This document shows positions 136-22,147 of a stretch of DNA of 29,230 nt, one piece after another. Below the pieces are notes generated by a model, which did not search any database, had not been told where the DNA came from, and saw only the letters and a list, made by a program, of their open reading frames with translations. Location: the IMG/VR virus record IMGVR_UViG_3300043446_000627, positions 1 through 29,230 of that record; one strand, given 5' to 3'. The DNA comes from a virus. Position numbers and translations under genes: made by a program. Within the stretch, counting starts at the first letter, position 1; each line of letters begins with the position of its first letter.

Positions 136-522
136 CTAACTGTCCTCTAGGGACTCGCCTTCAGGATGGCGGGGGGTTATTTCTTCTATGACAACGTGCA
201 GTAGACCGCCCTTGATTTGAGTTCCTCGAATCATCTCAATGTGGTCTACTTGGAAGTCATCGTCAAACACTCCAGCGTGTTCTAGTGCATCTAAGACCGC
301 TTTGATACGGTTGTCGATGTCGATTTTTCTTTTGTCTCTAGGACGCAGAATTAGTGTTAGTTTCAATTTCTTATCCCCAAATTTAGGAATGTTGTTGTCA
401 ATGACAAATTGGATGACTGCTTCTCTGAACTCTCTGCCGTTTTTGCTGATGATGGTTCTACCGCGAAAGTTGCGCCAGTAGGTGTTCATACTAGGCGGGA
501 ATGGCAGAGTAAAGCTAGTCAT
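136..522 (-). CDS. rusA: RusA-type Holliday junction resolvase
   Basis: This 128-residue protein matches the RusA family in length and motif order. It opens with FPPSMNTYWR, typical of RusA. The catalytic segment RPRDKRKIDIDNRIKAVLDA (residues 61-80) holds Asp68 and Asp70, and the third acidic cluster is at FDDDF (residues 86-90). RusA enzymes are homodimers that cut four-way junctions symmetrically using Mg2+ held by these aspartates, so this one probably resolves recombination or replication intermediates before packaging. The ATG overlaps the stop of the upstream gene (TGATG), with GGAGA just before it, so the two are translated together. It closes a recombination cluster with the SSB-like, RecT-like and YqaJ-like genes upstream. 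All catalytic acids appear present. Confidence 0.93.
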   Translation of the reverse strand: MTSFTLPFPPSMNTYWRNFRGRTIISKNGREFREAVIQFVIDNNIPKFGDKKLKLTLILRPRDKRKIDIDNRIKAVLDALEHAGVFDDDFQVDHIEMIRGTQIKGGLLHVVIEEITPRHPEGESLEDS

Positions 523-797
523 CAGAACGGCACGTCTCCTGCATCAACGTGTCTAACCTCTCTCGGATACTGCTGCTGTTGTTTGTTCCAGTTAGGGTCG
601 TTGATTTTCAGATTGAAATAAGGTCCATGACCAGCATCGTTTTGCCAAGCACCAAAGGTGATTACCTCACCCCTGAACATGAACGTGCCTTTCCAGTCAG
701 GTTCTTTATCGTTCTTCTTAAAAGCGTTCTTTGTCATCCGACCTTTCATCTCAAGTGGAACAAAGGGTGCTTTCTTGGGTTTGTCATCTGTATACAT
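522..797 (-). CDS. Small protein with SSB-like acidic tail, candidate ssDNA-binding protein
   Basis: The call is a 91-residue protein starting MYTDDKPKKAPF. The central part (DWKGTFMFRGEVITFGAW, then GPYFNLKI) reads as alternating beta strands, compatible with an OB-like fold. The C-terminus VDAGDVPF resembles the DDDIPF tail by which bacterial SSB recruits partner proteins. I therefore suggest, without a clear family match, a phage ssDNA-binding protein working with the RecT-like annealase and RusA on either side. The frame stays open to an ATG at 899, but that upstream part is occupied by the winged-helix frame at 784-918. The start at 797 overlaps that gene's stop (ATGTATACAGATGA) and has GGAAAGG about 12 bases upstream. 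A start at 818 is also possible. Confidence 0.6.
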   Translation of the reverse strand: MYTDDKPKKAPFVPLEMKGRMTKNAFKKNDKEPDWKGTFMFRGEVITFGAWQNDAGHGPYFNLKINDPNWNKQQQQYPREVRHVDAGDVPF

Positions 798-918
798 AAC
801 GTGCGTATTCCTTTCCATTTTCTTTAACCATAGTTGTAAGGATGGGATGTCCTTGTTTACGAAGATACTCGATATGTGCTGCAAGCCTGAATGAGCCATA
901 TTTTTGTAATGCGTCCAT
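784..918 (-). CDS. HTH_39-like winged-helix protein, 5' end unclear
   Basis: Read on the minus strand, this frame gives MDALQKYGSFRLAAHIEYL, then RKQGHPILTTMV and KENGKEYARYVYR. That is the core of the small phage winged-helix family HTH_39 (GSxTPxEAL, then FRLAARIxxLRxxG). Similarity continues upstream of the ATG at 918 without a stop: the codons from about 966 read REN, ILNHLQNIGSLTP, which is the missing first helix. No ATG or GTG exists in that extension; it offers only TTG at 945, CTG at 954 or ATT at 957, so the true start is unusual or reached by frameshift from recT (see findings). The stop overlaps the next gene's start. The likely role is DNA binding or regulation inside the recombination cluster. 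Confidence 0.6.
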   Translation of the reverse strand: MDALQKYGSFRLAAHIEYLRKQGHPILTTMVKENGKEYARYVYR

Positions 919-950
919 AGGAGTTAGTGAACCGATATTCTGCAAGTGGT

Positions 951-1799
951 TCAGAATATTCTCTCGTTGGCTTCCATGTCGGCTACGAACTGGGACGCTT
1001 CCGACTTTGGGTTGAGGTTTACCCCAACCTTGGCTAACTCTCCGCGTATCTTGATTTTGTCAAAAGAGCTAAAGTTATCGGTTACCGCCTTGTTTGCTTC
1101 TGCAAAGGCAGCAATCTTCTCGGTGCGTTGCTCGTCAGTTATCTTGGCTGCTTGCATGATTTTGCCGGCTAGTCCAACGTAGGCTTCTATCCACTCTTGG
1201 GGACTGCTGTAGAGGGCGTAGACCTCGCCATCGGGCTTGATGATGGGGTAGTCCCCAGTCGGCTCTTCTATGACCTCTACGGGCTTAATATCCTCAACTA
1301 CGCCCATATGTTTCGGCATAGGGCTATCAAAGTCCATAACCTCTTCTGTGGCGTAGTGACCCAAGATACAAGCAGGATAGATAGAACGAACTGCTCGGCT
1401 GATAACCCTAGCTCTGAGCATATCTTCAGGGTACTTAGACCAGCCTGAACCCTCGCGGTAGATGCCAGCCTGTTTAGCCATCTCGATAGTCCATTCGACT
1501 GTCAGCGTACCGCCCTGTGGGTGCTTGAATGTCCCCTTGACCTTTTTAGGCGTTACCTCGTCCCATTGAACTGAGCCACCGCTAAGTTGGAAACGGGCAA
1601 GGATAGCCTGAGACTTCAGAGCTGGCTTGCCTTGGATGATGTCGTATTCTTGGACAACAGAGGCTGGATGCTTGTTTTCCGCTTGCGCTACAAGCATGAC
1701 AGCCATAACTTGCTCTTTGGATTTGAACCCATAAAAGCCACTCTTGACAATGCTGTCAGCCATGACGGTCATGTCTGATACAGGGATGATGTTACTCAT
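951..1799 (-). CDS. recT: RecT-family single-strand annealing protein
   Basis: At 282 residues this is normal length for RecT-type annealing proteins. The N-terminal half carries the family pattern: KSKEQVMAVMLVAQAENKHP, then QGKPALKSQAILARFQ. Around residues 116-155 comes GSGWSKYPEDMLRARVISRA followed by VRSIYPACILGHYATEEVMD, the conserved RecT core. These proteins anneal complementary single strands produced by a partner exonuclease, here the YqaJ-type nuclease two genes upstream. The ATG at 1799 follows GGAGAAACTAAT, and the box ATAGTTAGGAAT lies just upstream at 1815-1826. The C-terminus is a variable tail ending ANERIF. Its stop lies inside the beginning of the winged-helix frame downstream. 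Confidence 0.88.
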   Translation of the reverse strand: MSNIIPVSDMTVMADSIVKSGFYGFKSKEQVMAVMLVAQAENKHPASVVQEYDIIQGKPALKSQAILARFQLSGGSVQWDEVTPKKVKGTFKHPQGGTLTVEWTIEMAKQAGIYREGSGWSKYPEDMLRARVISRAVRSIYPACILGHYATEEVMDFDSPMPKHMGVVEDIKPVEVIEEPTGDYPIIKPDGEVYALYSSPQEWIEAYVGLAGKIMQAAKITDEQRTEKIAAFAEANKAVTDNFSSFDKIKIRGELAKVGVNLNPKSEASQFVADMEANERIF

Positions 1800-1814
1800 A
1801 TTAGTTTCTCCAAA

Positions 1815-1826
1815 ATAGTTAGGAAT
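1815..1826 (-). promoter_or_regulatory. Recurrent upstream box ATAGTTAGGAAT (copy 1, before recT)
   Basis: On the coding strand this reads ATTCCTAACTAT and ends 15 bases before the recT start codon. The same 12 bases occur before the gene at 3683-3907, and close variants occur before ardC and before the gene at 5882-6073. Its role is unknown: it could be part of a promoter giving short leaders, or a binding site in DNA or RNA. Confidence 0.5.
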
Positions 1827-1878
1827 AGGTCGACAACCGATGTGGCTGCCATTACATATATTGCGACATCTTGAGTAG

Positions 1879-2061
1879 TCACAAGTCCCTCGCTTTCAGC
1901 ATTTGGTCTGCTATTTCGTAAGCCTGTTGAGGTATTCCTGAAAATGAAACATCATTGTCAATTAAGGCTTGCATAGCCTTTGCTGCGAAATAGTCTCTCA
2001 GACTCATGCCCTTGTCATCAGAGCCAGTCTTAGGGTCACGGGGACTAGGAAATGCGTTCAT
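1879..2061 (-). CDS. Small conserved-looking phage protein (SLRDYFAAKAMQALI)
   Basis: This 60-residue protein starts MNAFPSPRDPKTGSDD and contains SLRDYFAAKAMQALI, a segment I recognise from many small phage and prophage proteins without known function. An upstream ATG at 2103 is in frame. I prefer 2061 because AAAGG stands six bases before it and because the segment upstream is coding in another frame for the gene at 2045-2224. The two genes overlap by 17 bases, so this one is probably translated by coupling. No membrane segment or metal-binding motif is visible. Confidence 0.7.
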   Translation of the reverse strand: MNAFPSPRDPKTGSDDKGMSLRDYFAAKAMQALIDNDVSFSGIPQQAYEIADQMLKARDL

Positions 2062-2224
2062 CTTTAACCTTTCTGCCGGGCTTGGCTTTAGGAGTGCCGT
2101 CAATTCTCAGCCCCCATTGAGACTCTTCTAGCTTAGACAAACGCATAAGAGTGTCCTTGTACAACTCTTCTAGCATCACAATTTCACGCTCTAAGCGTTC
2201 TAATCTTTTAGTATTGAAAAACAT
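2045..2224 (-). CDS. Small charged helical protein between exonuclease and recT
   Basis: This 59-residue frame starts MFFNTKRLERLEREIVMLEE and continues as an amphipathic, probably coiled-coil helix. A basic tail, GTPKAKPGRKVKDERIS, follows. It begins four bases after the stop of the YqaJ-type gene, whose last codons supply the ribosome site (AAGGGGTAATGT before ATG). It ends inside the next gene. The tight fit on both sides and the helical composition support real coding. Function is unknown; the basic tail could touch nucleic acid, and the location suggests a helper of the recombination proteins. Confidence 0.72.
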   Translation of the reverse strand: MFFNTKRLERLEREIVMLEELYKDTLMRLSKLEESQWGLRIDGTPKAKPGRKVKDERIS

Positions 2225-2227
2225 ACA

Positions 2228-3133
2228 TTACCCCTTGTTAAGAAAACGTCTACCAGATGGATACTCACGCTTGAATTGGTTAAACAAGTCAGGCATGGAT
2301 TGCTCAAAGAGTTTGGAATCAAACTTAATGCTTGGCTTTGCTGACTTCCAAGTGGCTAAGACTCTGCCGTCCAAGGTGACCAATTCGCTGTTAACCCCCA
2401 TAAATTTTTGGATTTCTAGGGCTAACTTCTCTTCCTCAGCTTCCCATTTCTTAATCTCTTTCTTAGTGTAGGCAAGGGCTTGGCAAATCTGCTCCATTGA
2501 TTGCGTAGCGGTTATGCTTGTCGGTGCGGATGCTGAGTAGATGAGTTTCGCTTGCTCGGTAGTCTCAGGCTCAAGCGGGAGCTTAGTCTCAACGTGCGCC
2601 CAGTACTTCGCCATATCCTTGATGAGCTGCTCCTTTTGCGCTTCCGCAATGGTGAATCTAAACACTTCAAAGTTTTGTCCACCGAATAAAACAGCCAACA
2701 CAATGTCGTTGATATTGTGGACTGCCGCCTCATGGATGAGTTGCGCCATATCAGCCGCAGGGATGATGTTGGCTTCACTATCGAACTTGTTGCGTACGCT
2801 AGCGTTGTAGTTCTTGACTTCCACAAGTGTTTGCCCGTCAGTCGAGATGAAATCAAAGTGTGACTTGAGCCAAACTTCTTTCGGGTGAGTGAGCGCATAG
2901 TCTGCTTCCTTGAGTTCAATGCCTAGTTTTTGTTGAGCAAGAGTGCCGATTATGGGCTGGAGAACATGACCCATCTGCACCGCCTCAACTTCAGATAAGT
3001 CGGGGCGTTCCATGAGTCCCAGCTTTTGTAGGACAGCATCGTTGCCTCTGCCGTTGGCTGCCATGCGTGAGTCCCCAGACCACCAAGCGGAGTTGCGTAT
3101 CTCTGGTGCGAATTCTGAACGGTCATTAGCCAT
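2228..3133 (-). CDS. YqaJ/lambda-exonuclease-type viral recombinase nuclease
   Basis: This 301-residue protein has the layout of the YqaJ viral recombinase family. NSAWWSGDSRMAANGRGN opens the fold. MGHVLQPIIGTL (residues 54-65) is the first conserved helix. The PD-(D/E)XK active site is seen as HFDFISTDGQTLVEVKNYN, with Asp94, Glu105 and Lys107. Such enzymes degrade one strand of a DNA end, loading a RecT- or Bet-type annealase; the recT gene lies just downstream. The helix motif usually reads GxxxEP; here the acid is replaced by Gln59. About 100 C-terminal residues are charged and helical (ATQSMEQICQALAYTKKEIK). The gene overlaps its upstream neighbour by eight bases. Confidence 0.87.
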   Translation of the reverse strand: MANDRSEFAPEIRNSAWWSGDSRMAANGRGNDAVLQKLGLMERPDLSEVEAVQMGHVLQPIIGTLAQQKLGIELKEADYALTHPKEVWLKSHFDFISTDGQTLVEVKNYNASVRNKFDSEANIIPAADMAQLIHEAAVHNINDIVLAVLFGGQNFEVFRFTIAEAQKEQLIKDMAKYWAHVETKLPLEPETTEQAKLIYSASAPTSITATQSMEQICQALAYTKKEIKKWEAEEEKLALEIQKFMGVNSELVTLDGRVLATWKSAKPSIKFDSKLFEQSMPDLFNQFKREYPSGRRFLNKG

Positions 3134-6154: not shown

Positions 6155-7021
6155 TTACGCCGCTAGGGGTAAGGGTACTATCTCGGCGTTTGATTCGTCC
6201 AAGGCGTTTATGTAATCCGCCGCCTTTTGAGCTAATGCGGCGGCTTTAAATATCGCCTTTGAGTCCTCTTTTAGGACTTTTAACCAGCTTTGCAAGTATC
6301 CGGCATGGCGTAACTCGCCTTGTATGCGGTAATCTTGACAGAGGAAAGCCGCGCCCATTTCAGCAACTAATTCCTCGAAAGCATAGGCGTTATCGCCAAA
6401 GCGTTTGCCAAATACGCGCTTTTCCCTATGCTCCGCGCCCGTCCAATGTACTAACTCATGAAATACGGTTGCATAGTAATTTGACTCAGTTAAAAAGCTA
6501 GCTTTATGCGGCACGTTGATTTTGTCAACGCTTGGAGCATAAAAGGCACTATCGCCGCCATGCGTGATAACAGCGCCGGTTAGCTTGATGCGTAGCTCGG
6601 CGGCTTCAATGGCGTTAAATGGCTTTGTATCGGCGCTAGGTGCTTGGATTGTCACGCCGTCAACTTGACTAGCATTGAATACATAATATGCTTTTAGCAA
6701 GTTATAGCTTTCAATGTCGCCGGTAGCTTTATTCTCTTTTGTGACCGGCGAGTAAAAGACAATCTTAGTACCGCGCTCGCCTTTGCGTACGTTAGCGCCG
6801 ATACTTTGCCATTGTTTAAAGCTAGCCCATACTGGACAATCAAAAGAGTTAACCATGCTCGACAAACCTAGAATGAGCCGGTTTACGCCTTGGTAAGGCT
6901 TTTGTGAGAGAAAGTTTTTATCGGCAGTGCTATCGGTTTTCCAAGGCTTAATCCACGGCGTAGCGCCATTTTCTAATTGCTTGATGATGCTATCGGTTAC
7001 TTCTTGATAGACTGTAGACAT
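6155..7021 (-). CDS. ardC: ArdC-type antirestriction protein (ssDNA-binding plus metallopeptidase domain)
   Basis: The 288-residue protein has both ArdC parts. The N-terminal domain (residues 1-125) begins YQEVTDSIIKQLENGATPWI and contains WKTD, YQGVNRLIL and ANVRKGERGTKIVFY, the ssDNA-binding DUF1738 pattern. The C-terminal domain carries a zinc-peptidase motif, FHELVHWTGAEHR (His188, Glu189, His192), with acidic residues in YAFEELVAEMGAAFL as likely third ligand. Plasmid ArdC protects entering DNA from restriction and binds single strands; here the gene is the first of the leftward early region, the natural place for an anti-defence protein. The start has AAAGGGG and the recurrent box upstream. 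The length is close to the family norm and all motif residues are intact. Confidence 0.92.
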   Translation of the reverse strand: MSTVYQEVTDSIIKQLENGATPWIKPWKTDSTADKNFLSQKPYQGVNRLILGLSSMVNSFDCPVWASFKQWQSIGANVRKGERGTKIVFYSPVTKENKATGDIESYNLLKAYYVFNASQVDGVTIQAPSADTKPFNAIEAAELRIKLTGAVITHGGDSAFYAPSVDKINVPHKASFLTESNYYATVFHELVHWTGAEHREKRVFGKRFGDNAYAFEELVAEMGAAFLCQDYRIQGELRHAGYLQSWLKVLKEDSKAIFKAAALAQKAADYINALDESNAEIVPLPLAA

Positions 7022-7050: not shown

Positions 7051-7177
7051 AACATAGTATAGCATGATTATATTGAACATATGAATTATGCTACCCTATA
7101 CCCTATATGGCGAAAGAATCATGCCAACCTATCATAAGTTATTGATTTATATAGGTGACTATTTTTTTATACACAAG

Positions 7178-7186
7178 TTATCCACA
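7178..7186 (+). promoter_or_regulatory. Perfect DnaA box TTATCCACA
   Basis: This is the exact high-affinity DnaA site. It stands at the left edge of the iteron cluster, 15 bases before the first ATGTAGATA, next to a tract of seven T. Host DnaA could open the adjacent AT-rich DNA here. Confidence 0.7.
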
Positions 7187-7200
7187 ATTTCTAGCGTATT

Positions 7201-7425
7201 ATGTAGATATTTATTATGTAGATAATTAGATAAAAAAATTATGTAGTTGTATGTAGATACCTATATAATATCTATAAACAATAGTAGAACTATTGTTTAT
7301 AGTATCTACATACAATATATGTAGATAATTATGGTATCTACATACTATATATATTATATATAGTAAACTATGATATGTAGATAAATGTATTATATATATT
7401 GTAATTGTCTATAAACTATCTACAT
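7201..7425. repeat. Iteron array ATGTAGATA (5 forward, 3 reverse copies)
   Basis: Eight exact copies of a nine-base unit, five forward and three reverse, plus a near copy at 7241. Starts are at 7201, 7216, 7251, 7319 and 7375 forward, and 7303, 7335 and 7417 reverse. Spacings are irregular (15 to 56 bases), and copies face each other across the central palindrome. Such an array would bind a phage initiator or repressor many times; no initiator gene is visible in the window. Confidence 0.75.
7272..7302. repeat. Perfect 14-bp inverted repeat in origin region
   Basis: CTATAAACAATAGT (7272-7285), centre AGA, then ACTATTGTTTATAG (7289-7302), without a mismatch. TCTATAAAC also recurs at 7408-7416. 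It could be a dimer binding site or a cruciform or hairpin on single-stranded DNA; it lacks the GC-rich stem of a terminator. Confidence 0.8.
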
Positions 7426-7430
7426 AATGA

Positions 7431-7713
7431 CAATGTAAAGAAAAGAGGGAAAGTTGACATAATATCTACTCTCCACCCTACTGCAAAAGGGGTTTATTGT
7501 GTGTGTAGCGCCATGCTATGCGGCGTACCATGCGAGCTACACGCTACTGGTAAGGGCAACGGGTAAGGCGAGAGCTAACCATGCGAGAGAGAGCGTGTGT
7601 GGACATCACTTGGGTTTGAGGGTGCTGAGGTGCGTGCCCCATTCCCCTTTCCCCCCAAAAAAAATATGTGTTTTCTGGTATGCTGATGTTTTGTCAGTTG
7701 TCCTTCTGGGCTT
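7431..7713 (+). other. Probable transcribed leader without a convincing gene
   Basis: Between the origin repeats and a terminator lie about 280 bases. TTGACA at 7454-7459 could be a -35, but no good -10 follows. AAAAGGGG at 7484-7491 stands six bases before GTG 7499, opening a frame of 93 codons (starting VCVAPCYAAYHASYTLLV). That frame runs through the terminator hairpin and its T-run, and its composition (Cys, His, Trp, Leu clusters) is not protein-like. A short peptide or an untranslated leader or small RNA ending at the terminator is more plausible. Nothing like a tRNA is seen. Confidence 0.35.
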
Positions 7714-7741
7714 AAGCCATTCTTGCGAGTGGCTTTTTTTT
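7714..7741 (+). terminator. Intrinsic terminator, plus strand
   Basis: AAGCCATTC (7714-7722), loop TTGC, GAGTGGCTT (7727-7735): nine pairs with one wobble, running into eight T (7734-7741). It ends a rightward transcript starting near the origin, just before the first gene of the late arm, and so isolates that arm from origin transcription. Confidence 0.8.
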
Positions 7742-7776
7742 CGCCTATACTGCCCACTATGGATATGGGGATGCAA

Positions 7777-7989
7777 ATGATTAGTATGGAATTAACTAAA
7801 GATGTACCAGTTCCTCCTGACAAGCGGAGGTATCCGTACAAGGTGATGGATGTGGGGGACAGTTTCTTTGTTGCCGAGGGTAAGTTACAAGTGGTGTGTA
7901 ACAACAACTATCGGACTGGGAAGAAGTTGGGTCGTAAATTTATCGCTCGTTGTGAAGAGCATGGTGTAAGGGTATGGAGGGTGTCGTAA
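7777..7989 (+). CDS. Conserved small phage protein (YPYKVMDVGDSFFV)
   Basis: The 70-residue protein has the pattern of a family I know from many phages: PPDKRRYPYKVMDVGDSFFV in the first half and RKFIARCEEHGVRVWRVS at the end. A two-strand, basic, compact fold is likely, and DNA binding has been a common guess for the family but is not shown. Several in-frame ATGs precede (7759, 7765, 7771); I choose 7777 because GGGGA stands five bases before it, and 7786 is possible too. It is the first gene after the terminator at 7714-7741. Confidence 0.72.
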   Translation: MISMELTKDVPVPPDKRRYPYKVMDVGDSFFVAEGKLQVVCNNNYRTGKKLGRKFIARCEEHGVRVWRVS

Positions 7990-21363: not shown

Positions 21364-21692
21364 TGGGACTTAATGCCTTTACTAAAACTGGCAACACCGT
21401 TGCATTTGTTGCAAATGTGGCTGCACCAACGGCTGTTCAATGCTTGTCCACTACGATTGGTGGCAACCAATACCGCATCATTAACTCTGGCTCTGTTGTC
21501 GTATTCCTTGGTTACGGCACAAGCGCAAGTGATGCTGCCAACAACTGTGCGGTTGTATCGACTACAGGACCATCCTTCCCGCTACTTGCTGGAACTGATG
21601 AGATTCTTACTTTTGTGCCAAACGCTTACTTTACGGGCATTACGGCTAGTGGCAACGCCACTATCTATATCACGCCCGGTGATGGGCTTTGA
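21363..21692 (+). CDS. Small beta-rich virion protein after the fibre
   Basis: The 109 residues (MGLNAFTKTGNTVAFVANVA through GGNQYRIINSGSVVVFLGYG) form strands rich in Thr, Ala and Val. The start overlaps the fibre stop by one base (TAATG), so it is coupled. Its size and composition resemble fibre-associated or decoration proteins. GC content returns to the window norm directly at the boundary with the AT-rich fibre. The 3' end overlaps the convergent HNH gene by 28 bases. Confidence 0.68.
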   Translation: MGLNAFTKTGNTVAFVANVAAPTAVQCLSTTIGGNQYRIINSGSVVVFLGYGTSASDAANNCAVVSTTGPSFPLLAGTDEILTFVPNAYFTGITASGNATIYITPGDGL

Positions 21693-22147
21693 ACTAAAGT
21701 ATTACACCATGATTTATAGCCCAAATGTTCAATATGGAGTTGATTGTGATGTTGCTGGCATAGCCACGTCACAACAAGTTTCATATCTTGGGCGTATGAA
21801 GAGTGGTGTGCTTGCCCAGTTTCTCCGCAAACAAAGCATGGCTCTTTTTGGATTTTTCCCGTCCTCAATGCGTGTCGAACAGCATTTTTTGCAGATTCTC
21901 TTGTTGGGTCACGCTTGTACCGCTTGGCTGACAACTTGCCTTTCTCGCTTTGTTTGTACCTTTTTTTGTTTTCTGGGTACTGTTTCTCTCTCTTCCTTGC
22001 TTCTTTTCCAGATTCTGTTTTTCTATACTCTTGGTTCTTTTTCTGTACGCAAATTTTGCATTGCTTTAAAAGACCATCGGGCATACCTCGGTTTCGGAAA
22101 AATTCAGTCAAAGGCTTGGCTTGCTGACAGCAGTTACAAGTTTTCAT
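21665..22147 (-). CDS. HNH-type (zinc finger) endonuclease, inserted on the opposite strand
   Basis: The 160-residue protein has two zinc sites. The N-terminal one is CNCC (4-7) with CKIC (30-33). The C-terminal one reads CFVCGETGQAHHSSYAQD (104-121), then WLCQQHHNQLH (129-139), the phage HNH / endonuclease VII-like pattern with His114 and His115 as likely catalytic pair. The middle is a very basic linker (KRYKQSEKGKLSAKRYKRDP) for DNA contact. It is the only minus-strand gene in the late arm. AAGGGG precedes its ATG. Freestanding HNH genes move as homing endonucleases, cutting phages that lack them; the intact motifs suggest it is active. The last twelve residues lie in the overlap with the convergent gene. 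Confidence 0.87.
   Translation of the reverse strand: MKTCNCCQQAKPLTEFFRNRGMPDGLLKQCKICVQKKNQEYRKTESGKEARKREKQYPENKKRYKQSEKGKLSAKRYKRDPTRESAKNAVRHALRTGKIQKEPCFVCGETGQAHHSSYAQDMKLVVTWLCQQHHNQLHIEHLGYKSWCNTLVQSPSPGVI

What the first reader, a model, noticed from the sequence alone, without database searches (positions are those of the whole stretch)
7080..7430. Divergent AT-rich region with perfect DnaA box and iteron array looks like the phage replication origin
Seen: TTATCCACA at 7178 and eight exact copies of ATGTAGATA (five forward, three reverse) in about 225 bp, flanked by divergent transcription. Known: DnaA box, iterons and an AT-rich tract are the parts of theta-type plasmid and phage origins. 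Inferred: this phage may begin replication by host DnaA plus a phage-coded iteron-binding protein not recognised in the window, which is unusual for podoviruses with their own primase and polymerase. Alternatively the repeats are operators governing both arms.
Basis: partly seen in the sequence, partly recalled or inferred. Interest (0 to 1): 0.75.

Follow-up and report, generated by a model that had tools for sequence, protein, structure and literature searches.

The report
DnaA-box mini-origin in freshwater phages
A family of uncultured, mostly freshwater phages with no recognisable replication-start, helicase or polymerase gene carries a small DNA element that looks like a miniature bacterial replication origin (paired host DnaA-protein sites beside the most easily melted DNA of the genome), which suggests that they may borrow the host's own start-of-replication machinery.

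Summary
TTATCCACA is at 7178, and eight exact copies of a 10-mer (TATCTACATA) lie at 7200-7426. All 17 distinct close-relative gap sequences keep the main box, with a partner box 11-12 bp away on the same strand or 16 bp away on the other. The least stable 100 bp of the record (7314-7413) lies about 130 bp away. Other clades carry 2-4 boxes at 11-12 bp steps in a different left-arm gap, usually beside an AT-rich tract. One phage has 18-bp-spaced iterons there instead. The premise that the phage has its own primase and polymerase is wrong: none was found, and the genomes carry only SSB, RecT, a RecE/YqaJ-type exonuclease and RusA. Best reading: a host-DnaA-type origin, followed by recombination-dependent replication. 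The TATCTACATA array is a separate dyad-like element, probably sites for an unidentified dimeric protein, and is found without DnaA boxes in some relatives. Weak points: most long family records lack the box pair, GC skew is mixed, and nothing functional was measured. DnaA-regulated transcription remains a live rival.

The parts
7167..7175 (+). DnaA box 1, TTATACACA (fits TTATNCACA)
   Evidence: partner box present in all 17 clade-A gaps, same strand 11-12 bp away in 10, opposite strand 16 bp away in 7
7178..7186 (+). DnaA box 2, TTATCCACA (E. coli high-affinity consensus)
   Evidence: 17 of 17 close relatives keep 8 of 9 positions, position 6 is C in 14 and A in 3
7187..7430 (.). AT-rich tract, putative DNA-unwinding element; least stable 100 bp of the whole record at 7314-7413
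   Evidence: nearest-neighbour stability profile
7200..7209 (-). repeat 1, TATCTACATA
7215..7224 (-). repeat 2
7250..7259 (-). repeat 3
7303..7312 (+). repeat 4
7318..7327 (-). repeat 5
7335..7344 (+). repeat 6
7374..7383 (-). repeat 7
7417..7426 (+). repeat 8; this TATCTACATA column block is one of the conserved blocks of the clade-A alignment
7272..7302 (.). perfect 14-bp inverted repeat with a 3-nt loop inside the AT-rich tract
6155..7021 (-). ArdC-like antirestriction gene, first gene of the leftward arm; absent from several relatives that keep boxes and repeats
   Evidence: Pfam ArdcN and MPTase-PolyVal; gene table
7723..7989 (+). first ORF of the rightward arm, unknown function; used as anchor for the comparisons
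136..3133 (-). recombination block: RusA 136-522, SSB-like 522-899 (weak PHROG hit), RecT 951-1799, RecE/YqaJ-like exonuclease 2228-3133

Best explanation
The boxes and AT-rich tract (about 7167-7430) are most likely the replication origin of the phage, of the host-DnaA type. Host DnaA binds the pair of co-oriented boxes at 7167 and 7178, opens the adjacent AT-rich tract, and the host helicase, primase and polymerase III follow. The phage-coded SSB, RecT, exonuclease and RusA then support recombination-dependent replication and concatemer processing. The TATCTACATA array is a second element laid over the same tract: probably binding sites of an unidentified dimeric protein that controls origin opening or the divergent early transcription. 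Shown: the sequence elements, their conservation, the instability of the tract, and the absence of recognisable replication initiator, helicase, loader and polymerase genes. Inferred: DnaA binding, strand opening, origin function, the switch to recombination, and any role of the repeats.
For: (1) Pairs or clusters of TTATNCACA boxes occur in 32 of 236 family loci (some loci overlap one contig) against 0-1 in each of 20 Markov-randomised sets. (2) All 17 distinct gap sequences of the close clade keep the main box plus a partner; box 2 is invariant at 8 of 9 positions where 30% of gap columns reach 16/17. (3) In the window, G1, G2, L168, L175, L184 and L192 the least stable 100 bp of the stretch lies beside the boxes; in L042, L066, L056, L039 and L108 the second distinct minimum, and in L074, L143 and L236 the lowest, lies beside the boxes although they sit in a different gap or clade. 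(4) The module is separable from the divergent promoter gap: other clades have 2-4 boxes at 11-12 bp steps inside the leftward arm, patchily on the TerL tree. (5) Sister phages L042 (boxes) and L051 (four ATAGCCATA repeats at exactly 18-bp spacing plus two inverted) have different replicator-like elements beside the same homologous gene. (6) No DnaB_C, DNA_pol_A, Rep3_N, IstB/DnaC or Phage_rep_O match in 28 records, with controls ringing; none among the extra genes of near-complete G2. (7) A tandem pair with at most 3 bp between boxes beside the unwinding site is the commonest arrangement predicted in bacterial chromosome origins (PMC8287927), and helical phasing and co-orientation matter there (PMC6669920; PMC10721633). 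(8) The exact tandem pair is rare in the bacterial genomes checked: 1 of 60.
Against: 24 of 31 long family records lack a same-strand pair of TTATNNACA boxes with a 2-3 bp gap; some of these have inverted pairs, but most have no cluster, so the module is not general even within the family. GC skew is mixed: its minimum falls in or beside the divergent gap in circular L084 and L085, which lack the boxes, but not in G2, which has them, and transcription direction confounds it. L113 and L122 have the boxes without a strongly AT-rich neighbour. In seven close relatives the partner box is on the opposite strand, unlike the co-oriented chromosomal pair. Where it was looked at, the boxes also lie upstream of a leftward gene, so DnaA-controlled transcription is possible. 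A divergent phage initiator could be among the unknown small genes. The host is unknown and no binding or replication was measured.
Confidence: 0.6

Rival explanations
1. Transcriptional control region: the DnaA boxes let host DnaA regulate the leftward early promoter, and the repeats are operators for a phage regulator of both arms. No replication starts here.
For: The gap separates divergent arms, with 12 promoter-like matches against 4.9 expected. Boxes lie about 80-230 bp upstream of a leftward ORF both in clade A and in the left-arm sites. The repeat flanks (G before in 31 of 57, C after in 19 of 57) make a GTAT...ATAC dyad, typical of dimeric regulators. Repeats occur without boxes in L197.
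Against: Does not explain why boxes travel with an unstable tract to another gap, why sister L051 carries spaced iterons at that place, or how a phage with no recognised replication initiator replicates.
Confidence: 0.22
2. Plasmid-like iteron origin: an unrecognised phage initiator binds the TATCTACATA repeats and DnaA only assists, as in P1 or RK2 replicons.
For: Many close relatives show the repeats as direct copies 16 bp apart beside DnaA boxes and an AT-rich tract; one relative has 18-bp-spaced iterons.
Against: No Rep3_N match in 28 records. In the window the repeats are of mixed orientation and irregular spacing. Boxes occur without these repeats in L112, L236 and the left-arm sites examined. 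ArdC cannot be the required partner, since it is undetected in L008, L168, L175 and L184.
Confidence: 0.12
3. Packaging (pac) region: the repeats are terminase sites, since TerL lies 1 kb to the right.
For: Position next to the terminase genes.
Against: DnaA boxes are unexplained, the repeats are missing from many relatives whose TerL is 80-84% identical, and the box module occurs in another part of the genome.
Confidence: 0.04

Closest known systems
Bacterial chromosome origin with paired DnaA boxes next to the unwinding site (basal unwinding system, PMC8287927, PMC6669920, PMC10721633)
   Same: Two co-oriented boxes with 2-3 bp between them directly beside the least stable DNA.
   Different: Sits in a phage genome, only two strong boxes in the window, DnaA-trios not established, partner box inverted in some relatives.
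Iteron plasmid / P1-type theta origin (from general knowledge; reviews PMC4980987, PMC5043065 listed)
   Same: DnaA boxes, AT-rich tract and repeats in one 250-bp stretch.
   Different: No initiator gene recognised; repeats of mixed orientation and irregular spacing in the window; repeats and boxes occur independently in relatives.
Phage lambda ori (O-protein iterons) (general knowledge; PMC3985674 listed)
   Same: Phage origin that uses the host replisome.
   Different: No O-family match in 28 records; boxes are for host DnaA rather than a phage initiator.
Phage origins predicted by software, e.g. Pseudomonas phage vB_PseuGesM_254 (PMC11512268)
   Same: AT-rich region with DnaA boxes proposed as a phage origin.
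   Different: That is a single large myophage predicted with Ori-Finder; here the pattern is conserved across a clade of phages that lack recognised replication proteins.

Membership tests
DnaA-dependent replication origin | Cluster of high-affinity DnaA boxes beyond chance | tested here: met
DnaA-dependent replication origin | Adjacent AT-rich, easily melted tract | tested here: met
   7314-7413 is the least stable 100 bp of the record
DnaA-dependent replication origin | Conservation of the boxes in relatives | tested here: met
   17/17 in the close clade; patchy outside it
DnaA-dependent replication origin | Strand-composition switch at the site | tested here: inconclusive
   skew minimum at or beside the gap in L084 and L085, not in G2; confounded with gene direction
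DnaA-dependent replication origin | Binding by DnaA and initiation at the site | not testable with these tools
   needs footprinting and nascent-strand or coverage mapping
Basal unwinding system (BUS) | Tandem co-oriented DnaA boxes with at most 3 bp between | tested here: met
   2 bp between the boxes in the window; definition from PMC8287927
Basal unwinding system (BUS) | At least three DnaA-trio motifs within 16 bp of a box | not tested
   strand orientation not established from the text; the motif is too loose in 77% A+T DNA
Iteron (Rep) plasmid-type origin | Cognate initiator gene (Rep3-type) | tested here: not met
   PF01051 absent from 28 records
Iteron (Rep) plasmid-type origin | Regularly spaced direct repeats | tested here: inconclusive
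   irregular and mixed orientation in the window; 16-bp spaced direct copies in many close relatives
Lambda-type origin | O initiator / helicase loader pair | tested here: not met
   PF04492 and PF01695 absent from 28 records; the lambda P family itself was not searched

The most novel reading that the evidence does not exclude
Phages that encode no initiator, helicase, loader or polymerase and start replication directly with host DnaA on a captured or convergent mini-oriC, with the replicator behaving as a swappable cassette (DnaA boxes or iterons, in at least two genomic positions) within one phage family.
Probability: 0.4. Interest if true: 0.75.

Novelty: new variant of a known kind. Interest (0 to 1): 0.55.

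Why it matters
If true, these uncultured phages run a minimal replication strategy: no recognised initiator or replisome gene, the host's chromosome initiator used directly, recombination proteins for the rest. That would tie phage replication to host initiation control and give a very small natural substrate for testing DnaA-driven opening. It also offers a way to ask how phages exchange replicators, because box-type and iteron-type elements sit beside the same gene in sister phages. Tandem DnaA boxes were found in 120 stretches of viral DNA before the scan hit its limit, only about four of them showing window genes, so the pattern may be wider than this family.

Tried and rejected
Repeats as weak DnaA boxes (TTATCTACA is one mismatch from TTATCCACA): rejected as the main reading because the base before the repeat is mostly G (31 of 57), not T, and the flanks form a dyad. 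ArdC as the repeat-binding protein: rejected, undetected in several relatives with repeats. Structured RNA: no Rfam family, only a chance-level hit. Possible phage helicase: the phrog_16 hit belongs to a DNA methyltransferase. GC skew as proof of an origin: mixed and confounded. Host identification through TerL in bacterial genomes: five matches, binned under unrelated bacteria (alpha, beta, Paludibacterium, Patescibacteria, Saccharibacteria), so no host call. Literature searches found no direct precedent for a DnaA-only phage origin, but only open-licence papers are held and the phrases were narrow.

Full report
WHAT IS THERE. The window is a 29,230-bp virus record without end repeats. Its left arm is transcribed leftward: RusA, an SSB-like protein, RecT, a RecE/YqaJ-like exonuclease, small unknown genes and an ArdC-like gene. 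Its right arm is transcribed rightward: three small genes, TerL, portal, capsid and tail genes, with SU10-type portal and adaptor matches. The finding lies in the divergent gap between them. All eight extend to the exact 10-mer TATCTACATA. Shuffles of the same AT-rich region never gave more than four copies of any 10-mer.

CONSERVATION. TerL, ArdC and exonuclease searches of viral contigs gave hundreds of relatives. In 236 loci (some overlapping the same contig) 32 carry close pairs or clusters of TTATNCACA; Markov-randomised copies gave 0 or 1. In the close clade, which is one TerL clade with 100/100 support, 17 distinct gap sequences all keep the main box 477-617 bp before the first rightward gene as anchored by tblastn. 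The partner box is 11-12 bp away on the same strand in ten and 16 bp away on the other strand in seven. Box 2 is invariant at eight positions and C or A at the sixth. The TATCTACATA repeat is present as 3-8 exact copies in 15 of the 17; L005 and L089 have TATATACATA instead.

MELTING. By nearest-neighbour stability the least stable 100 bp of the record is 7314-7413, 5.3 sd below the mean. In the other close relatives tested (G1, G2, L168, L175, L184, L192) the minimum also lies within about 200 bp of the boxes.

THE MODULE MOVES. In other clades (L039, L042, L049, L056, L066, L074, L108, L113, L122, L143, L195) two to four boxes at 11-12 bp steps sit inside the leftward arm, where both genes are held between the exonuclease and ArdC genes, usually next to an AT-rich tract. 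The label is patchy on the TerL tree. L051, sister of L042 with 100/100 support, has at that place no boxes but four ATAGCCATA repeats exactly 18 bp apart plus two inverted copies, beside the same homologous gene. This separability argues that boxes plus unstable DNA form a replicator-like cassette and are not merely part of the divergent promoter region.

NO REPLICATION PROTEINS. G2 (35,767 bp) has overlapping ends (376 of 405 positions identical when its first and last 405 bp are laid together; TerL split over both ends), so it is near-complete. Its genes not found in the window include methylase, glycosyltransferase, holin and endolysin matches but no replication protein; one helicase-family hit is the methylase. 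DnaB_C, DNA_pol_A, Rep3_N, IstB/DnaC and Phage_rep_O are absent from 28 related records while the control genomes ring. The two public circular relatives list none either. B-family polymerases and primases were covered only by the gene-by-gene scans.

THE REPEATS. They are not simply weak DnaA boxes: the base before TATCTACATA is G in 31 of 57 copies against 15% background, and C follows in 19 of 57, giving a GTAT...ATAC dyad. In many relatives two or three direct copies are 16 bp apart. L197 has repeats without boxes, and L112 and L236 have boxes without repeats. ArdC is undetected in several phages with repeats. The repeats are best read as sites of an unidentified dimeric protein, regulatory or accessory.

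MECHANISM. Proposed: DnaA binds the pair, opens the tract, the host replisome loads, and the phage recombination set takes over later. A tandem pair with at most 3 bp between boxes is the most frequent arrangement predicted at bacterial origins (PMC8287927), and co-orientation and helical phasing matter there (PMC6669920; PMC10721633). None of the functional steps is shown here.

LIMITS. In 24 of 31 long records there is no same-strand pair by the looser pattern TTATNNACA (inverted pairs such as in L168 and L175 are not counted by it), and these must replicate some other way or with unseen elements. GC skew minima fall in or beside the gap in the circular relatives L084 and L085, which lack the boxes, and not in G2, which has them. 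L113 and L122 have boxes without an extreme AT-rich neighbour. The host is unknown. The exact tandem pair was found in one of 60 genomes related to a betaproteobacterial bin, which shows rarity but not in the true host. I rate origin function 0.6, transcriptional control 0.22.

Noticed in passing
window 7660-7760: Conserved stretch before the first rightward gene: CCAAAAAAAATATGTGTTTTC block, then a terminator-like hairpin at 7714-7735 and a promoter-like TTGCGA-N17-TATACT at 7723-7751. It could be a short conserved transcript with its own terminator.
   Followed up: partly
L051 1548-1731: Four ATAGCCATA repeats at exactly 18-bp spacing and two inverted copies, with no DnaA boxes, in the left-arm gap where its sister L042 has tandem DnaA boxes.
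   Followed up: partly
L239-L358: Tandem TTATCCACA pairs in 120 stretches of viral contigs (scan stopped at its limit), only about four with window genes; 55% lie near DNA in the least stable 2% of their stretch against 29% for random positions.
   Followed up: partly
L005 and L089, divergent gap: Both DnaA boxes read TTATCAACA and the repeats read TATATACATA: box and repeat changed together in the same two phages.
   Followed up: no
window 21665-22147: Minus-strand ORF inside the tail-fibre region with an HNH/endonuclease VII-like look (endonuclease PHROG matches in the batch scan, assigned to it by inference); perhaps an inserted homing-type endonuclease.
   Followed up: no
L362:12470-13522 (G2 30069-31121): N6/N4 DNA methyltransferase gene in the left arm of G2, with no counterpart found in the window.
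   Followed up: no
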